From contig MWBJ01000004.1 in NCBI GenBank assembly GCA_002069525.1, positions 1 through 32,666 of the forward strand: a stretch of DNA of 32,666 nucleotides, in the 5' to 3' direction. Position 1 is the first letter of the stretch. Each line of letters starts with the position of its first letter. The translations under genes were made by a program, and so were the position numbers. The stretch is from Parcubacteria group bacterium ADurb.Bin305. Its GTDB lineage: Bacteria > Patescibacteriota > Minisyncoccia > UBA6257. The notes beneath the pieces were generated by a model. That model worked only from the letters and a program-made list of their open reading frames with translations, ran no database searches and was not told where the DNA came from. Below are positions 10,169-32,666 of the stretch, piece by piece.

Positions 10169-11323
10169 TTAGTGATACCTATTATTACTAAAGACTCTTT
10201 GGCATCCTATCATTTCTTGGCAAGAGATAACATTGTAGCCATGGCAAATTCCCCAAGGTCCATAATTAGTGGCTGTGGGGTAATCAAAGGAAGAATTAAT
10301 TGCGCATTGAGAACAAGCTTTGTCAGGTTGCGGTGTTGGTTGGCATTCATAGCAGCAAATTCCGCCAGCGTTGCAAACACAATCAGTGTCTACTTGATAT
10401 AAACAATCTAGTCCGCAACCATAGTATCCGCGATAACTGGTAGCTCTTAGTGCCTTTTTACAATCAAAAATAGATTCAGGTGTATTAGGTCGCCATACGC
10501 CACCACCGCAACCAAAACCATTTCCTTTGGCAAAATAACCCGGAACTTTTTGCACTACACAATTAGTAAATCCACCTTTATAGCCAGTGCAATGACCCCA
10601 GCGTTTTTGGCAATGCAATTCGTCTGTGGGAATTTCACCTATTTCACCTTCGTTAACCACAGTGTTGATTCCTGCTTTTTGCGGTTGCCAAGTGCAATCT
10701 TGGTCATAACCATAAGGCTTGGCAGCGCTATAAGTTGGTAGGCAGTCCACATCGTCGTCTGTTTCACCATCACAATCTTGGTCTCTGCCATCAGGAATTG
10801 TGGTAGTAAAAGGCGAATTTTTATAGCAAGTAGGGCAATTTTCATCGCAATCTTCTCCTTTCCACCAGTAATAACCGTCACCATCGCAGTCCATAAATAT
10901 TGGGCAAGGTGGATCAGCTGGTCTGCTCGGGGCTTGACAAAGATTGGTTCCTTTACCTACCCCCCAAGGTTCGCATTCTATTAACCCAGCAGTTTCCCAC
11001 GGTCTAATATAAAATCTATCAACTGCTTGATTATAACTAGAAGTATCAACTTCGGGTGACAAAGTTGAAGTTTCTGTGCTAGCTGGGGCATTACTTAGAG
11101 CTGCTGTTAACGCTAGAGGTTGATTGGGCCATTGAGGAATCAAAGTCGTAGTAAAAAAATCCTTTAAAAATTCCAAGGGATTATTTCCAATAGTTGGACT
11201 AGCACCTCCTAGAGATGTTATTGCGCTTTCCTCCATAGCTAAAACTACTCTTCCTTGTGTTAAGAAGGGAATAATAATGAAGGCCAATAGGTAAATTAGT
11301 AGATTGTTTCTCAATAATTTCAT
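10169..11323 (-). CDS. Cys-rich secreted protein with MopE-like metal-binding motif (copy A)
   Basis: This 384-aa protein has a signal peptide (residues 1-30, LLRNNLLIYLLAFIIIPFLTQG) and a Ser/Thr-rich linker. At about 140-195 is a calcium/copper-type motif of the MopE kind: MDCDGDGYYWWKGEDCDENC, then PDGRDQDCDGETDDD. The rest is dense in Cys, often paired (CCYEC, CSQC), and ends with a conserved block YPTATNYGPWGICHGYN. Aspartate-rich DxDxDG loops probably bind calcium, and the Cys residues suggest disulfides outside the cell. It is a tandem paralog of the gene at 11413-12561; the last ~83 coding nt are almost identical between the two. Function is unknown; an adhesin or apparatus cap is possible. 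Confidence 0.82.
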   Translation of the reverse strand: MKLLRNNLLIYLLAFIIIPFLTQGRVVLAMEESAITSLGGASPTIGNNPLEFLKDFFTTTLIPQWPNQPLALTAALSNAPASTETSTLSPEVDTSSYNQAVDRFYIRPWETAGLIECEPWGVGKGTNLCQAPSRPADPPCPIFMDCDGDGYYWWKGEDCDENCPTCYKNSPFTTTIPDGRDQDCDGETDDDVDCLPTYSAAKPYGYDQDCTWQPQKAGINTVVNEGEIGEIPTDELHCQKRWGHCTGYKGGFTNCVVQKVPGYFAKGNGFGCGGGVWRPNTPESIFDCKKALRATSYRGYYGCGLDCLYQVDTDCVCNAGGICCYECQPTPQPDKACSQCAINSSFDYPTATNYGPWGICHGYNVISCQEMIGCQRVFSNNRYH

Positions 11324-11412
11324 TAGCTGTGTTGGTAAAACTTTTTATTTTTTTATTTTTTTATTTTCTTGGTCAATGACTTAGTGATTAAAATTCATCA
11401 GTGATAATTATT

Positions 11413-12561
11413 TTAGTGATAAGCGTTAGGAATAATTTTTCTAGAGCAACCTATCATTTCTTGGCAAGAGATAATATTGTAGCCATGGCAAATTCCCCAA
11501 GGTCCATAATTAGTGGCTGTGGGGTAATCAAAAGTAGCATTAATTTTACATTGAGAGCAAGCATCGTCAGATTCTAAAACTGGATGACAGGCCTCGCAAC
11601 CACCACAACCATAATAACCTTTATAGCTGTCTGTTCGTAATGATTTTTTACAATCAAAGATAGCATCTTTTTCTGTTTTATCGCGCCAGATACCGCCACC
11701 ACAATTGTAACCGCTGCTTTTGACAAAATAACCGGGATTTTTGGCGATAGTGCAATTAGTATAACCTCCTCTATAATCAGTGCATTGACCAAAAATTTTC
11801 TGGCAATGCAAATCATCAGTAGGTATTTCTCCCATTTCCCCTTCATTGACTAAAATATTTTTAGGCTGAGATAACCAATTGCAGTCTTTATCATAACCAA
11901 AAGGTACTGGATCTTCAGCATATTGGGGTATACAATTTATTAAATCATCTACTGTGCCATCACAGTCTTGATCTCGGCCATCAGGTAGAGAGGTTGTATG
12001 CGGTGAGTGTTCGTAGCAAGTAGGACAATTTTCGTCGCAATCTTTGCCTTCCCACCAGTAATAACCATCTCCGTCGCAATCCATAAATATTGGACATGGT
12101 GGATCGCCAATCAAATTACCGGGCAGACAGGCGCTATACCCTTGTCCCGGTCCCCAAGGCTCGCACTCTACTAGCCCCGGCTCTTTCCAAATTAAAAGTT
12201 CGCCCAAATTAAATTTTGACATATCCTTTAATGGCAGGGGTAAAAATAATTTAGGCAAAGTGGGCACTCGACTGCTGGCAGCCAATAAAGCCTCGGCTGA
12301 TTTTACTGAAAAATTTTGAGGGCTTGTGGTAATTGGGGTGGGTTGAGACAAAGTTGTGGGGGAAGTTTCTAAGGGAAAATCTGTTAGAGGCGCAATTGTA
12401 TTGTCAGACGATCCATTTTGGCAACTAGAACAGCCAGATGATTGAGGCTGGTTAATGTTTTGGGTGTTTGCTATGATGCCTTGGTCAATCCAAATAAATA
12501 TTATTATCAACACCAAACAGCAGGTAAAAATAAATATGAAAGGAAAATTTTTAGTAGGCAT
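11413..12561 (-). CDS. Cys-rich secreted protein with MopE-like metal-binding motif (copy B)
   Basis: This 382-aa paralog of the gene at 10169-11323 has the same layout. An N-terminal hydrophobic anchor or signal (FPFIFIFTCCLVLIIIFIWI) is followed by a Cys pair region (CSSCQNG), a Pro/Thr-rich linker, the MopE-like block (MDCDGDGYYWWEGKDCDENC, then PDGRDQDCDGTVDD) and a Cys-rich C-terminus. It lacks the ~20-residue insert with clustered Cys (TDCVCNAGGICCYECQ) seen in copy A and has a CGGCEACHP stretch instead. It is the first gene of the minus-strand run, 78 nt after rsmA ends. No Shine-Dalgarno site is seen; the start context is AAAATTATG. Function is unknown. Confidence 0.82.
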   Translation of the reverse strand: MPTKNFPFIFIFTCCLVLIIIFIWIDQGIIANTQNINQPQSSGCSSCQNGSSDNTIAPLTDFPLETSPTTLSQPTPITTSPQNFSVKSAEALLAASSRVPTLPKLFLPLPLKDMSKFNLGELLIWKEPGLVECEPWGPGQGYSACLPGNLIGDPPCPIFMDCDGDGYYWWEGKDCDENCPTCYEHSPHTTSLPDGRDQDCDGTVDDLINCIPQYAEDPVPFGYDKDCNWLSQPKNILVNEGEMGEIPTDDLHCQKIFGQCTDYRGGYTNCTIAKNPGYFVKSSGYNCGGGIWRDKTEKDAIFDCKKSLRTDSYKGYYGCGGCEACHPVLESDDACSQCKINATFDYPTATNYGPWGICHGYNIISCQEMIGCSRKIIPNAYH

Positions 12562-27990: not shown

Positions 27991-28705
27991 AATGGTGGAA
28001 TTTAATTTTTATTAAATCAAAAAACATTAGAACTATATTTTTAAAATTAAACGTTGAAGGTGCGAATAATTTTTGTTCTAATTCTACCTCTTTGACAGAA
28101 TATGATAATAATTTAGCTAAATATAAAATTTCTATATCAATGGCAAATTTATTAGTAAAAGTTCTGGGCATAATATCTAAAGCGCTTTGCCGTTTGAATC
28201 CTTTTAAGCCGCACTGGGTGTCAGCATAGGGCAAGTTAAATAATAATTTTAGTAAAACATACAAACCGGGCCGCAGTATTTTTTTGTAGCCGGCATTATT
28301 GTAAAAATTTTTTCTTTTAGTAATCACAATATCAGCCGGGCTGGTTATTAGTTCAGTCAAGATAGCTTCTATCCCTTCGCTGCCAAAAGGTAAATCGTCA
28401 TCTGTAAAAATAAGATAATCACAGCTGGCTTCTTTAACTCCATCTCGCCAGCTAGCTCCTTTCCCCTTATTTTTGGGATGCTCTAGGTACTTTATTTTAT
28501 TGGGGTAGAGATTTCTTATTTTATAAGTTTCATCTTGGCTGCCATCATTAACTATGATAATTTCTGCCTGAGGAAAGCGAGTTAATAAAATTTCAACACT
28601 TTGTTTTAACCAAGCGAATTTTTGATAGGTTGGAATAATTAGGGAAAAAAATTTTTCCTGAGCCGGTGTATTTTCTGAAATTTCGTTAGACCAGTTGTTA
28701 GCCAT
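27980..28705 (-). CDS. GT2 family glycosyltransferase (dolichyl/undecaprenyl-phosphate sugar synthase-like)
   Basis: This 241-aa GT-A fold enzyme resembles ALG5/DPM1-type synthases that move a sugar from an NDP-sugar to a polyprenyl phosphate. Visible marks are SLIIPTYQ (22-29), IIIVNDGSQDET (49-60), the catalytic-region FTDDDLPF with its DDD metal site (about 99-106), and DTQCGLKGFKR (160-170), typical of ALG5-like enzymes. FAIDIEILYLAK (about 188-199) follows. There are no clear membrane helices at the C-terminus. Its stop overlaps the start of the GT-C-like gene by 11 nt, fitting a two-step route: load the lipid carrier, then transfer outside. Activity is by family analogy. Confidence 0.88.
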   Translation of the reverse strand: MANNWSNEISENTPAQEKFFSLIIPTYQKFAWLKQSVEILLTRFPQAEIIIVNDGSQDETYKIRNLYPNKIKYLEHPKNKGKGASWRDGVKEASCDYLIFTDDDLPFGSEGIEAILTELITSPADIVITKRKNFYNNAGYKKILRPGLYVLLKLLFNLPYADTQCGLKGFKRQSALDIMPRTFTNKFAIDIEILYLAKLLSYSVKEVELEQKLFAPSTFNFKNIVLMFFDLIKIKFHHYEI

Positions 28706-29047
28706 ATCAGGTATAAAAATTAATATCTTTGAGCAGTATAATGATTATCTTAATTTTATTAATCATAGTATAAACAATAATTTTTTGTTTAGCAAGATAG
28801 AAGCTCTCAGAAAATTTCTCCAGTTATAAATATCTGATTTTTTATTAAATAATCTTGGTTGTAGGTCAAATATTTCTCAAGTCCTGCAGAGTTCTTAATG
28901 ATTATTGGGAATTGCGGCAATTAATTATAATTAATTATTTTGTTTTGAAACTTCAATTTGCTTTTTGATTTTGAAGTTTATTCTCTGGTATGCTCTCAGT
29001 AAATAAAAATAAATTCAAAATACCAATCTCAAAATGCCCAAGGCATA

Positions 29048-29124
29048 ATTCATAATTCATGATTCATGATTCTTGATTCTTAATTCATAATTCTTGATTC
29101 ATGATTCTTAATTCATCATTCATA
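29048..29124. repeat. Heptamer tandem repeat, ATTCWTR, 11 units
   Basis: Eleven uninterrupted 7-bp units of the form ATTC(A/T)T(A/G) run from 29048 to 29124; only one unit ends in C instead. A looser twelfth unit (ATTTGTC) follows. The array lies 33 bp upstream of the -35 box of the DGR target gene. Confidence 0.88.
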
Positions 29125-29156
29125 ATTTGTCATTTTACACTACCCAATTCGAATAC

Positions 29157-29185
29157 TTGACCTTTTAAGTTAATAACGTTAAAAT
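29157..29185 (+). promoter_or_regulatory. Promoter of the DGR target gene
   Basis: TTGACC, 17-bp spacer, TAAAAT. Transcription would start near 29192, giving a leader of about 23 nt with no Shine-Dalgarno site before the ATG. Confidence 0.7.
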
Positions 29186-29214
29186 AGAATAAACCCTATT
29201 CTCTTAGATAAATT

Positions 29215-30717
29215 ATGTCTTACCAACACTTAGGATTAAGATCTAAAAGTTTTACTTTAATAGAGCTTTTAATCACTATCGGAATAATAGCTATTTTATC
29301 AACTTTGCTTCTAACTGTCTTAAATCCTTGGGAGATGATTGCTCGTTCCAGAGACACCAAAAGAATAACTGAATTAAGAGAATTAGCTCAAAATATTTCT
29401 TTACTCATTGCTCAGGATTTTACAGGCAATATTTCCTTAGGCAACCCTAATACTGTCTATGTTTCTTTGCCTTCAGATCAACCTGACTGTTCAGACCTAC
29501 ATTTGCCTGCCCTGCCTGCCCCTTGGATCTATCATTGCTCTAATTCTAATAATTTCAGAAAAGTTGATTCCTCTGGCTGGCTTCCTATTAATTTTCAAGA
29601 AGGAGGCGCTATTCAATTAAGCGCTTTACCTCTTGATCCTCAAAACACCTATACCCAGAATCTAACCAATAGAGATGACCTATTTTTCACCTATGCTGTG
29701 GGCGCTGATTTAGAGTTTGAATTAAACGCTAAAACAGAATCTATTAAATACGGTTTTAAAGACAGAGATATGTTCCCTATCATTAATCCTGCCACTTATG
29801 ACAATCCTTTATCAGATGGCGGAGACAATGGCTTGTATGAAACAGGTTCTTTATTAACTCTTATTCCTGATTCTGGAGGTCTGTGCCCTTCTGGTATGGT
29901 CTATGTCCCAGCCCCTTTAAGAATCTGCCTTGATAGATATGAAGTTTCTTATTCCAACTCAGGAACTAAACCAGATGGCACCTATTGTAATGCTCGCTGT
30001 CCTTTATCTATTCCTAATGCCAATCCTTGGACTTCTCGTTCTGGCTGGCCCAGTGTACCTCAAGATGATGGCGTGCGGGAAACCGGAGCTTCAGCTGATG
30101 ATGCCCTTGATTATTGCGCTAATATGGGTAAAGTCCTGCCTACTGATTTTGAATGGTACCTAGGAGCCGCTGGGACTCCTGATCCATATAATTCTAAACC
30201 CTCAAGAATTACAGGTTCTAATGTTGAAGGTCCTGAACCTTGTATGATTTGGAATACTGATTCCACTGATAACCTAGTAGAACGACCCCAAGGCTCTACC
30301 CAATGCGATGATGGTTATACTTGGGGTTCTGACATCAATCCTAACATTAAAACAGGCACAGCTTTACAATGTATCTCTCTTGTTGGAGCTTATGATATGA
30401 TTGGCAATGTCTGGGAATGGGTCAATGACACTAAAAACACTAATGATATTTATTCCAGCGGCAACACCAAAGTCCCTAATTCAAATAGAACCATAGCCCA
30501 AATTAACAACTACGGAGTCCCTGTTGATGCAGGAGGTACTTCTTGTTCTGGTTTGTGCAATTCTGATTATTACTGGGTAACTTCTGGTTCTTTAACAGCT
30601 GGCCTCCGTTCTGGCAGTTGGGACTATGGCGCGAATGCGGGGCGATTTTGTTTGCGTTTGAACTACGCGCCGTCGGGCCCGGGCCGCACTGTGGGGTTTC
30701 GGTGCGCCCTCAGGTAG
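29215..30717 (+). CDS. DGR target protein: prepilin-like N-terminus with C-terminal FGE-sulfatase/C-type-lectin-like domain
   Basis: This 500-aa protein is the diversified product. A short basic leader precedes SFTLIELLITIGIIAILSTL (12-31), a class III signal of type IV pilins and pseudopilins with Glu at position 5 of the mature form (E17); Ser replaces the usual Gly before Phe13. Residues 40-195 look like a pseudopilin globular part. Residues ~222-500 are an FGE-sulfatase domain (CPSGMVYVPA, then GAYDMIGNVWEWVND, then GFRCALR), the C-type-lectin fold used by known DGR targets. The last 37 codons are the variable repeat. Nine residues differ from the template: D470, Y471, R481, Y484, G488, P489, G490, R491 and T492. 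The protein would show its variable face on a pilin-like or membrane-anchored stalk. Confidence 0.9.
   Translation: MSYQHLGLRSKSFTLIELLITIGIIAILSTLLLTVLNPWEMIARSRDTKRITELRELAQNISLLIAQDFTGNISLGNPNTVYVSLPSDQPDCSDLHLPALPAPWIYHCSNSNNFRKVDSSGWLPINFQEGGAIQLSALPLDPQNTYTQNLTNRDDLFFTYAVGADLEFELNAKTESIKYGFKDRDMFPIINPATYDNPLSDGGDNGLYETGSLLTLIPDSGGLCPSGMVYVPAPLRICLDRYEVSYSNSGTKPDGTYCNARCPLSIPNANPWTSRSGWPSVPQDDGVRETGASADDALDYCANMGKVLPTDFEWYLGAAGTPDPYNSKPSRITGSNVEGPEPCMIWNTDSTDNLVERPQGSTQCDDGYTWGSDINPNIKTGTALQCISLVGAYDMIGNVWEWVNDTKNTNDIYSSGNTKVPNSNRTIAQINNYGVPVDAGGTSCSGLCNSDYYWVTSGSLTAGLRSGSWDYGANAGRFCLRLNYAPSGPGRTVGFRCALR
30601..30711 (+). repeat. DGR variable repeat (VR)
   Basis: This 111-bp segment at the end of the target gene aligns without gaps to 32194-32304. 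There are 13 mismatches, and each is at an adenine of the template copy (A to G 7 times, A to C 4, A to T 2). The 98 other positions, including 88 non-A template bases, are identical. The first 21 bp and the last 22 bp are unchanged. The final 22 bp (30690-30711) contain no A in either copy and stand where the initiation-of-mutagenic-homing sequence lies in known DGRs. Confidence 0.96.
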
Positions 30718-30764
30718 TCTTTACTTTACTTTACTTTAACCCTTAACTCTTGACTCTTTAACCC

Positions 30765-30807
30765 TTTAGCGACTTGGTAAGTCTTTATGACTTACCAAGT
30801 CGCTAAA
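30765..30807. promoter_or_regulatory. Perfect 19-bp-stem hairpin downstream of the VR
   Basis: TTTAGCGACTTGGTAAGTC and its exact reverse complement flank a 5-nt loop (TTTAT). It lies 53 bp after the VR end and 31 bp before the RT gene. It has no T-tract, so it is a poor terminator. In the Bordetella phage DGR a hairpin/cruciform just after the VR is needed for efficient homing. The TR has no such element after it. It may instead be an operator or mRNA structure. Confidence 0.82.
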
Positions 30808-30838
30808 TTCAAAAATCAAATTTTAATCTTTCTCTACC

Positions 30839-31870
30839 ATGAAAACATATAAGCATCTTTATTCTCAGATTTACGATTTCAGAAATTTATTAAAAAGTTA
30901 TTATCAAGCTAGAAAATGTAAAAGTGAAAAAAATTACATAATAGCTTTTGAGTGGAATTTAGAAAAAAATCTTTTCGAAATTCAGGAGCAATTGAAAAAT
31001 TGTAATTATCAATTTGGGCCTTATCACAGTTTTTATATCATAGATCCTAAAAAACGTTTAATTTTTGCCGCTCCTTTTCAAGATAGAGTTGTTCATCATG
31101 CTCTTTATAATATCATTGAGCCGATTTTTGATAAAAGCTTTATTTTTGATTCTTTTGCCTGCAGAAAAAACAAAGGGACGCATAAAGCTGTGGGGAGATT
31201 AAAAAAATTTATGCGTGCTTTTGGAGATGATCAATTTTATATCTTTAAAGCGGATATTAGGAAATATTTTCCAAGCATTGATAAAGAAATATTATTTTCT
31301 TTAATCCAGAAAAAAATAGCTGACCGGAAGGTTCTGTATTTAATAAAAAAAATCTTAGAATCAACTAAAGAACAGAAAGGCATTCCTATTGGTAATTTAA
31401 CCAGTCAGTTATTTGCCAATATTTACCTAAATGAACTGGATCAATTTGTAAAACATAAATTGCAAGTTGAATATTACTGTCGTTATGTTGATGATTTTAT
31501 CCTACTGCATAGAAATCGCAAACAGTTGCAAGAATGGAAGGAAATGATTAAAGAGTTTTTAAGCCAAAGCTTGCGGTTGGAATTACATACTAAAAAACAA
31601 GAAATTTTTCCGGCAAAAATCGGAGTTGATTTTTTAGGTTATCATATTTTTAGGGATCATATTTTAGTGCGCCAAACCACAGTTAGACGTTTCCTGCGCC
31701 GTTTTAAAAGCGGTAAAATGCCTCAGCAATCAATAAATTCTTATTTAGGTCATTTTAAATATGCCGATAGTTTTGGTTTGATGAAAAAAATTAATAAAAT
31801 TTATGTTGAAAGATATCCCGATTTTTCACAAAACCTACGAGTTGATGCTCTGGCTCTATCCTCAAGTTAA
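30839..31870 (+). CDS. DGR reverse transcriptase
   Basis: This 343-aa protein is a reverse transcriptase of the DGR type. It copies the template RNA with errors at adenines to make the cDNA that replaces the VR. Motifs in order: FAAPFQDRVVHHAL (76-89), FACRKNKGTHKA (106-117), motif A KADIRKYFPSID (137-148) with Asp139, motif GIPIGNLTSQLFANIYLNEL (181-200), whose GNLTSQ fits the altered QG motif of DGR enzymes, catalytic YVDD (216-219), and FLGYHIF (~263). There is no maturase, endonuclease or integrase domain, which argues against a group II intron or retrotransposon. The Avd-like gene begins inside its last 68 nt. No Shine-Dalgarno site is visible. Confidence 0.95.
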   Translation: MKTYKHLYSQIYDFRNLLKSYYQARKCKSEKNYIIAFEWNLEKNLFEIQEQLKNCNYQFGPYHSFYIIDPKKRLIFAAPFQDRVVHHALYNIIEPIFDKSFIFDSFACRKNKGTHKAVGRLKKFMRAFGDDQFYIFKADIRKYFPSIDKEILFSLIQKKIADRKVLYLIKKILESTKEQKGIPIGNLTSQLFANIYLNELDQFVKHKLQVEYYCRYVDDFILLHRNRKQLQEWKEMIKEFLSQSLRLELHTKKQEIFPAKIGVDFLGYHIFRDHILVRQTTVRRFLRRFKSGKMPQQSINSYLGHFKYADSFGLMKKINKIYVERYPDFSQNLRVDALALSSS

Positions 31871-32159
31871 TAAATTTCCCAAAAATCAAAGGTTTGTTTT
31901 GGGTCAAGAGATTGAAAAAACAGGCTTAAATTTTTTAAAATTGATTATCAGGGCTAACTATAATCAAGAAAAAAGTTTGTTTTTGAAAGAAGCCAGTATC
32001 GAAATAAATGTTTTATTGATTTTGATTCGTTTTTCTAAAGATTTGCATTTTTTGTCTAACAGGCAATACGAATTCGCGGCTTTACAAATTAACGACATTT
32101 CTAACATGTTAGGTGGCTGGTTAAAATATGAAGAACATAAACTCCGGGTTTTCAATTAG
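31803..32159 (+). CDS. avd: Avd-like accessory four-helix-bundle protein of the DGR
   Basis: This 118-aa protein matches the Avd / S23-like four-helix-bundle family that assists DGR reverse transcriptases, in known cases as a positively charged pentamer bound to RT and nucleic acid. It opens with IFHKTYELMLWLYPQVNKFP and then RFVLGQEIEKTGLNFLKLII, both typical of the family. Two more helices and a KYEEHKLRVF end follow. The conserved HKTYELMLWLYP block is encoded within the last 68 nt of the RT gene in another frame, so the overlap is real and not a start-site error. It ends 34 nt before the TR, giving the compact order RT-avd-TR. Confidence 0.88.
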   Translation: MLKDIPIFHKTYELMLWLYPQVNKFPKNQRFVLGQEIEKTGLNFLKLIIRANYNQEKSLFLKEASIEINVLLILIRFSKDLHFLSNRQYEFAALQINDISNMLGGWLKYEEHKLRVFN

Positions 32160-32193
32160 AGTCGGAGAATAATGTGGGGATAAAAGATATTAG

Positions 32194-32304
32194 GGCCTCC
32201 GTTCTGGCAGTTGGAACAATGGCGCGAATGCGGGGCGATTTTGTTTGAATTTGAACAACGCGCCGTCGAACACGAACAACAATGTGGGGTTTCGGTGCGC
32301 CCTC
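32194..32304 (+). repeat. DGR template repeat (TR)
   Basis: This 111-bp template lies outside any gene, 35 nt after avd. In VR reading frame it holds ten AAY codons and one ACG, the codons that give the widest range of residues when adenines change and avoid stops. Twenty-three adenines are present; 13 differ in the current VR. The template RNA is expected to extend on both sides of this segment. Confidence 0.96.
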
Positions 32305-32523
32305 TGTAGCTTTTCTTACGAGATAACCTCATAGTTCATCTTCTGGTTTATCTCACTCACGATAATCCTAATTTTATATGGGGTTATAGTGGGATTAATA
32401 GATTCGGCCTGATTTTCTAAGTTCAAGGACTTAGAAACCGCGCCGTCAAAGACTTCTGCTTTTATTCCTGTCCGGTCCTATAAGATAACTTTATATTTTG
32501 CGGGGCTGGATTAAAATAAAAAC
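32305..32523 (+). ncRNA. Probable 3' part of the DGR template RNA (structured, non-coding)
   Basis: No gene is supported here. In studied DGRs the region next to the TR is part of the template RNA and serves cDNA priming and protein binding. Two foldable elements are visible: GAGATAA/TTATCTC at 32320-32354, and TTTCTAAGT/ACTTAGAAA (9 bp, 6-nt loop) at 32414-32437. Directly after the second is CGCGCCGTC at 32439-32447, a nine-base copy of a TR segment (32259-32267) within a wider match of 13/15. Boundaries are inferred. Confidence 0.45.
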
Positions 32524-32591
32524 AGGCAGCAGGTGCTAGTAACTGAAATTAATAATTTTAAAGCGAACGCTCCTGCTGCCTTCTTTCTTAA
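32524..32591 (+). terminator. Long hairpin with T-rich tail, possible end of the DGR transcript
   Basis: AGGCAGCAGG (32524-32533) pairs exactly with CCTGCTGCCT (32572-32581) around a 38-nt AT-rich loop that can fold further, and TCTTTCTTA follows. It suits a terminator of the RT-avd-TR transcript, though the loop is unusually long. Confidence 0.5.
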
Positions 32592-32593
32592 TA

Positions 32594-32640
32594 GGTATCT
32601 GGGACCAGCCCAGAGATTTTTCGCTCTGCTCAGAATGACA
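32594..32640 (-). repeat. Dispersed intergenic repeat, copy 2
   Basis: The reverse complement (TGTCATTCTGAGCAGAGCGA...) aligns without gaps to 24357-24403, about 37 of 47 bases alike. A further TTTGTCATTA lies near the window end at 32651-32660. It marks the right edge of the DGR transcript region. Confidence 0.75.
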
Positions 32641-32666
32641 AGTTCATCCATTTGTCATTAGTAATT

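What the first reader, a model, noticed from the sequence alone, without database searches (positions are those of the whole stretch)
29048..32593. Complete diversity-generating retroelement in a CPR-like chromosome
All parts are present within 3.5 kb: target gene with VR, hairpin, RT with DGR-type motifs (KADIRKYFPSID, GNLTSQ, YVDD), Avd-like protein and TR. All frames are open and the RT catalytic residues are intact, so the system looks active. DGRs are known to be frequent in CPR genomes; this particular target and layout are worth describing.
Basis: partly seen in the sequence, partly recalled or inferred. Interest (0 to 1): 0.92.

Follow-up and report, generated by a model that had tools for sequence, protein, structure and literature searches.

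The report
Retroelement that rewrites a pilin's tip
This is a complete diversity-generating retroelement, a known kind of bacterial gene-scrambling machine, in a tiny Patescibacteria-type genome; it rewrites the C-terminal binding head of a pilus-like surface protein, which may let the cell keep changing what it sticks to.

Summary
Confirmed: a complete diversity-generating retroelement (DGR). TR (32194-32304) and VR (30601-30711) differ at 13 of 111 positions, all 13 opposite TR adenines (P=4e-11); none of 88 non-A positions differ. The RT's best solved match is the BPP-1 DGR RT (1e-56), and DGR RTs separate from group II introns with 100/100 support. Avd passes the curated Avd model.

Added here: (1) TR is followed by a conserved, covarying spacer RNA (32399-32468). 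The model built from it finds 15 further loci in 244 genomes of the order, all beside a DGR RT or Avd. (2) Gene order is target-RT-avd-TR. Spacer-bearing relatives with a resolved order mostly use target-avd-TR-RT; only one relative (JAQVHD010000011) shares the window's order, which Chloroflexi DGRs also use. (3) The target joins an abundant prepilin-type stalk family to a C-type-lectin head; paralogues, one in the same genome, carry a ConA-like lectin head instead. The genome also encodes type IV pilus genes.

Likely role (inferred): hypermutating a pilus-borne adhesin. Activity is not proven; no reads were available. The element type is known; order and target are the points of interest.

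The parts
29215..30717 (+). DGR target gene, 500 aa: prepilin-type N terminus (res 9-32), about 215-aa pilin-like stalk, FGE-subtype C-type-lectin head with VR at the extreme C terminus
   Evidence: Pfam N_methyl 23.2 bits (cut-off 21.2) and FGE-sulfatase 45.8 bits (cut-off 23.3); stalk family in 215 of 244 genomes of the order; head profile matches TaqVP 2e-53 and TvpA 3e-15
30601..30711 (+). Variable repeat (VR), target residues 463-499; 9 amino-acid differences from TR, all caused by TR adenines
30765..30807 (.). Perfect 19-bp inverted repeat, 5-nt loop, 53 nt between VR and its first base, directly upstream of RT; candidate homing hairpin/cruciform
   Evidence: (z -8.5); 15 of 34 DGR loci have a stem of 10 bp or more within 150 nt after VR against 91 of 2786 random stretches
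30839..31870 (+). DGR reverse transcriptase, 343 aa, catalytic YVDD intact
31803..32159 (+). Avd accessory protein, 118 aa, start overlaps the end of RT by 68 nt
   Evidence: NF033474 DivGenRetAVD 104.1 bits (cut-off 80); bAvd PF22296 77.7 bits; overlap also present in L043
32194..32304 (+). Template repeat (TR), 23 adenines; 10 AAY codons; about 9.2e12 possible protein variants and no codon that can become a stop
32399..32468 (+). Conserved spacer-RNA core: outer helix closing on CYGA, inner hairpin, ACTNCTGC..TTATTCC tail
   Evidence: covariance model R1, 59.6 bits; 8 of 9 pairs change on both sides; TR to 32600 folds with z -5.1
32519..32586 (+). Distal imperfect hairpin (18-nt arms), probable 3' end structure of the TR/spacer transcript
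   Evidence: inverted repeat I13; function inferred

Best explanation
A complete DGR. Shown by sequence: TR, VR, DGR-type RT, Avd and a conserved TR-spacer RNA in one 3.1-kb cassette, with substitutions confined to TR adenines. Inferred from the BPP-1 mechanism: the avd-TR-spacer transcript folds, the spacer recruits RT-Avd, cDNA synthesis is primed from the spacer and copies TR with errors at adenines, and the cDNA replaces VR at the 3' end of the target gene. Inferred for this cassette: avd-TR-spacer stays together as the RNA unit while RT sits upstream of it, a circular permutation of the avd-TR-RT order of its relatives. Inferred for function: the target is a prepilin whose stalk is shared with many pilins of these bacteria and whose C-type-lectin head is the part rewritten, so the DGR produces many versions of a pilus-borne adhesin. 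The confidence given is for the DGR identity and anatomy; for the pilus-adhesin role it is about 0.55.
For: 13 of 13 TR/VR mismatches at A. RT: best solved match BPP-1 DGR RT over its full length, DGR clade 100/100. Avd equivalog above cut-off. Spacer RNA: model R1 finds 15 loci outside its training set at E<=1.6e-5, all beside an RT or Avd. Order: window and L043 = target-RT-avd-TR; L044, L045, L046, L049, L051, L053, L064, L163, L212, L295, L296 = target-avd-TR-RT with the same spacer. Target: stalk in 215 of 244 genomes; paralogue heads are ConA-like lectin (L086 in the same genome, L231, L233), DGR heads are FGE-type CLec. Prepilin peptidase, PilC-like, PilT and a pilin cluster in the same genome. 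DGRs diversifying tip pilins are reported for Bacteroides type V pili (PMC12632263).
Against: No read data, so activity is not proven. The hairpin does not match the BPP-1 form (7-10 bp GC-rich stem, 4-nt GRNA loop, 4-34 bp from VR; PMC3240598). The prepilin motif has Ser where the residue before the cleavage site is usually Gly. The full-length target model was poor (pLDDT 40) and the head model moderate (62.8). Assembly into a pilus and adhesion are inference.
Confidence: 0.9

Rival explanations
1. The cassette is a recently silenced DGR: parts intact but no longer firing, with VR fixed.
For: Roux 2021 reports lower than average activity in clades 2 and 3 (PMC8144416); only one VR is present and the genome is a single consensus.
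Against: 0 of 88 non-A differences between TR and VR, all frames open, catalytic residues, Avd and spacer RNA intact.
Confidence: 0.12
2. The RT-avd-TR order was acquired with the cassette from a Chloroflexi-like DGR instead of arising by permutation among CPR DGRs.
For: 14 Chloroflexi loci with a detected TR have the same order VR-RT-avd-TR; the AU test does not reject window + L043 + Chloroflexi as one clade (p=0.31).
Against: Spacer model R1 matches CPR relatives strongly but Chloroflexi at most weakly (L164, 13 bits, E 2.3). The end-to-end target family is found only in CPR. Nearest RTs outside the pair include CPR order-A elements.
Confidence: 0.25
3. The target is diversified to escape phages that use pili as receptors, not to bind new hosts or surfaces.
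For: Roux 2021 names virus-host arms races as an alternative for membrane targets (PMC8144416).
Against: Variation sits in a ligand-binding fold, and paralogue heads are also lectins, which fits binding better than mere avoidance. Not decisive.
Confidence: 0.2
4. The 19-bp hairpin is a transcription or mRNA-processing element between target and RT, not the homing hairpin.
For: It lies directly upstream of RT in the window and in L043, is longer and farther from VR than the BPP-1 type, and lacks the GRNA loop.
Against: Hairpins after VR are enriched in this set (15 of 34 against 3%); no T-run follows, so it is not a classic terminator.
Confidence: 0.45
5. The RT is a retron, group II intron or defence RT that happens to lie near a repeat.
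For: Generic RT profiles of those classes also match.
Against: TR/VR adenine bias, Avd, tree and 8ub7 match; all named NCBIfam RT equivalogs are far below cut-off.
Confidence: 0.01

Closest known systems
Bordetella phage BPP-1 DGR (mtd-avd-TR-brt; L221)
   Same: A-specific TR/VR pair, RT homologous over full length (8ub7), Avd homologue, structured spacer after TR, hairpin after VR, FGE-type CLec target (Mtd is the top fold hit)
   Different: Gene order target-RT-avd-TR; cellular genome; prepilin-stalk target; hairpin longer, farther from VR and without the GRNA loop
Patescibacteria/CPR DGRs (Paul 2017; RT clade 2 of Roux 2021; clade 5F of PMC10907252)
   Same: Host group, chromosomal location, CLec targets; several other CPR DGRs here share spacer RNA and the prepilin-CLec target
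   Different: Permuted order, seen in CPR only in the window and L043 in this sample; RT forms its own two-member lineage; most CPR DGRs here instead have target-TR-antisense avd-RT with short targets lacking a membrane segment
Chloroflexi DGRs (L164-L200)
   Same: Gene order VR-RT-avd-TR
   Different: Targets match only in the CLec part; spacer RNA does not match model R1; RT forms a separate clade (100/98)
DGRs that diversify type V tip pilins in Bacteroides (Macadangdang 2024, cited in PMC12632263)
   Same: Concept: the ligand-binding end of a pilus protein is hypermutated
   Different: Lipoprotein type V pilins, not type IV prepilins; different host phylum

Membership tests
DGR | TR/VR pair with substitutions at TR adenines | tested here: met
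   13 of 13 mismatches at A, P=3.8e-11; in 34 TR/VR pairs, window included, 517 of 1004 A against 18 of 2911 non-A
DGR | RT of the DGR clade, with GxxxSQ motif and intact catalytic site | tested here: met
   IPIGNLTSQ, YVDD; 8ub7 1.2e-56; DGR clade against group II introns 100/100
DGR | Avd accessory protein | tested here: met
   NF033474 104.1 bits, cut-off 80
DGR | VR in a C-terminal C-type-lectin fold | tested here: met
   FGE-sulfatase Pfam above cut-off; profile hits TaqVP and TvpA; fold hits Mtd, FGE, TaqVP on a moderate model
DGR | Structured spacer RNA 3' of TR | tested here: met
   model R1 and covariation
DGR | Hairpin after VR in the BPP-1 form (7-10 bp GC-rich stem, 4-nt GRNA loop, 4-34 bp from VR) | tested here: not met
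   19 bp, 42% GC, loop TTTAT, 53 nt from VR; the form was derived from phage DGRs, so this does not exclude membership of DGRs in general
DGR | IMH / IMH* pair at the 3' ends of VR and TR | tested here: inconclusive
   22 identical bases at the 3' end (30690-30711), then the sequences diverge; initiation site not mapped
DGR | Mutagenic retrohoming in vivo | not testable with these tools
   needs reads or reconstitution
Roux 2021 RT clade 2 (Patescibacteria) | RT inside that clade | tested here: inconclusive
   Window + L043 lie outside the main CPR clade B of this tree (100/99), but the AU test does not reject joining it (p=0.34); that clade B equals clade 2 is inference
Type IV prepilin (target) | N-terminal methylation motif with Glu+5 | tested here: met
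   SFTLIELL, N_methyl 23.2 bits, cut-off 21.2
Type IV prepilin (target) | Gly at -1 of the cleavage site | tested here: not met
   Ser, as in most of the aligned family; the Gly rule is general knowledge, and exceptions are known
Type IV prepilin (target) | Pilus machinery in the same genome | tested here: met
   prepilin peptidase; PilT above cut-off; GspF/PilC-like full length but below equivalog cut-offs; pilin cluster

The most novel reading that the evidence does not exclude
Patescibacteria build a modular family of pilus adhesins on one prepilin stalk with exchangeable lectin heads; in some lineages the head is a C-type lectin under DGR hypermutation, so an episymbiont could tune its host-contact pilus within a population. 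The window shows this with a permuted cassette in which the avd-TR-spacer RNA unit is kept whole and RT is placed upstream.
Probability: 0.5. Interest if true: 0.65.

Novelty: new member of a known kind. Interest (0 to 1): 0.42.

Why it matters
A review notes that most DGR targets of CPR epibionts are uncharacterised although attachment roles are suspected (PMC8867640). Here the target has a readable design: an abundant pilin stalk, swappable lectin heads, and a hypermutated C-type-lectin version. That gives a concrete, testable link between DGRs and the pili through which these episymbionts are thought to contact hosts. The covariance model for the spacer RNA also gives a way to find such elements and to ask which parts of a DGR must stay together.

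Tried and rejected
No Rfam family matches 28700-32666. A search for extra VR, RT or avd copies in the same genome found none. AU tests could not place window + L043 with Chloroflexi, CPR-A or CPR-B (p 0.31, 0.45, 0.34; the DPANN test was not finished), and RT+Avd concatenation did not resolve it. A hand-made pairing test of the outer spacer helix alone was weak (930 of 20000 shuffles reached the observed value); the model-based count was strong, but that alignment was fitted to the structure. The full-length target fold failed (pLDDT 40). Nucleotide search of plasmids found only short RT fragments. Paul 2017 and Wu 2018, the main CPR and classification papers, are not in the library, so whether the prepilin target was already described could not be settled.

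Full report
Observation. The window's last 3.5 kb holds a target gene, RT gene, avd and two repeats. VR 30601-30711 and TR 32194-32304 align without a gap over 111 nt. All 13 differences face TR adenines (23 A in TR; hypergeometric P=3.8e-11), and the 88 other positions are identical. The differences change nine codons of the target. TR has ten AAY codons, allows about 9.2e12 protein variants and cannot produce a stop codon. Among 34 TR/VR pairs (the window and 33 relatives) the same bias holds: 517 of 1004 A sites against 18 of 2911 non-A sites.

Genome and host. The window is contig C4 of a 573-kb, 63-contig genome, with one RT, one avd and one VR detected. The nearest RT (about 65% identical) belongs to a 'Candidatus Paceibacterota' MAG, JAQVHD010000011. 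The host is therefore Patescibacteria/CPR; a named taxon for the window itself was not available.

Proteins. The RT matches the BPP-1 DGR RT structure over its full length (1.2e-56), far above group II intron RTs (4e-21). In a tree of 84 RTs all DGR RTs split from group II introns with 100/100 support. Window + L043 form their own pair (100/100) beside separate clades of CPR-A, CPR-B, DPANN and Chloroflexi RTs whose deep branching is unresolved. Avd passes the curated equivalog model.

Gene order. Relatives fall into three main layouts: A, target-avd-TR-RT; B, target-TR-antisense avd-RT; C, target-RT-avd-TR. In CPR, C is seen only in the window and L043; it is the usual order in Chloroflexi (14 loci). 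The closest RTs found class-wide outside the pair (L295, L296) are layout A. C is a circular permutation of the avd-TR-RT block of A; avd-TR-spacer remains contiguous in both. This fits what is known for BPP-1, where the 3' end of avd, TR and the spacer form one RNA that recruits RT-Avd and primes cDNA synthesis (PMC12875486). Flanking genes of the window have no match around L043, so the element sits at different sites.

Spacer RNA. TR plus 300 nt downstream folds with z -5.1. By eye a common element follows TR in layouts A and C. A covariance model (R1) made from 12 sequences gives, on its fitted alignment, two-sided changes at 8 of 9 pairs and 40 such cells against 12.9 in shuffles. In 244 genomes of the order it has 25 hits at E<=1.6e-5, 15 of them not used to build it; all 25 lie beside an RT or Avd, and the three weaker hits do not. 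Chloroflexi loci match at most weakly. Spacer and target thus tie the window to CPR-A elements, although the gene order resembles Chloroflexi.

Hairpin. The 19-bp perfect inverted repeat 53 nt after VR is the longest in the window. Stems of 10 bp or more within 150 nt after VR occur in 15 of 34 loci against 91 of 2786 random stretches. It does not have the form that BPP-1 needs (PMC3240598), so a homing role is plausible but open.

Target. Residues 9-32 are a prepilin motif and residues 290-497 an FGE-type C-type lectin. The first 215 residues belong to a pilin family present in 215 of 244 genomes of the order, often in several copies. Paralogues, including one in the window's own genome (C9:18270), carry a ConA-like lectin head where the DGR targets carry the C-type lectin. 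The head profile matches the DGR variable proteins TaqVP and TvpA, and the head model's best fold hits are Mtd, human FGE and TaqVP (model pLDDT 62.8, TM about 0.4). The genome has prepilin peptidase, PilC-like, PilT and a pilin cluster. The inference is a pilus-borne adhesin with a hypermutated head.

Known and new. DGRs, their abundance in CPR and their CLec targets are known (PMC8144416, PMC10907252). Diversification of tip pilins by DGRs is reported for Bacteroides type V pili (PMC12632263). Cassette order is known to vary widely (122 patterns, PMC6642488). No open paper searched describes type IV prepilin targets in CPR, but the key CPR paper could not be read. The verdict is a new, well-supported member of a known kind, with a notable target and an order rare in its host group.

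Noticed in passing
window 29044-29148: Array of 7-bp units (CATAATT/CATGATT/CTTGATT) upstream of the target; similar stretches at C2:15407, C5:12454 and C14:56 of the same genome. Possibly a variable-number repeat in the promoter region.
   Followed up: partly
L288:5525-6217 (G000:C14 end): Second pilin of the target's stalk family (55% identical over residues 8-214) running off the contig end, so its head is unknown.
   Followed up: partly
L054-L082 except L064: A large CPR DGR group has avd on the opposite strand between TR and RT, with roughly 200-270-aa targets mostly lacking a prepilin motif.
   Followed up: partly
L047, L048: RT with avd antisense and downstream and the spacer RNA upstream of RT: a further cassette order; no TR/VR pair was found on these contig stretches.
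   Followed up: partly
L044, L053: Target ORFs end in a different frame around VR, suggesting frameshifts or assembly errors at the diversified end.
   Followed up: no
L145: Viral DGR contig with a tandem avd-TR-avd-TR arrangement, the kind of duplication that could lead to a permuted cassette.
   Followed up: no
L233: Paralogue ORF joins an Smr domain to the pilin stalk and a ConA-like lectin head in one frame; likely a too-early start codon.
   Followed up: no
window 10169-12561: Two adjacent, strongly similar secreted Cys-rich proteins (384 and 382 aa), a likely tandem duplication.
   Followed up: no
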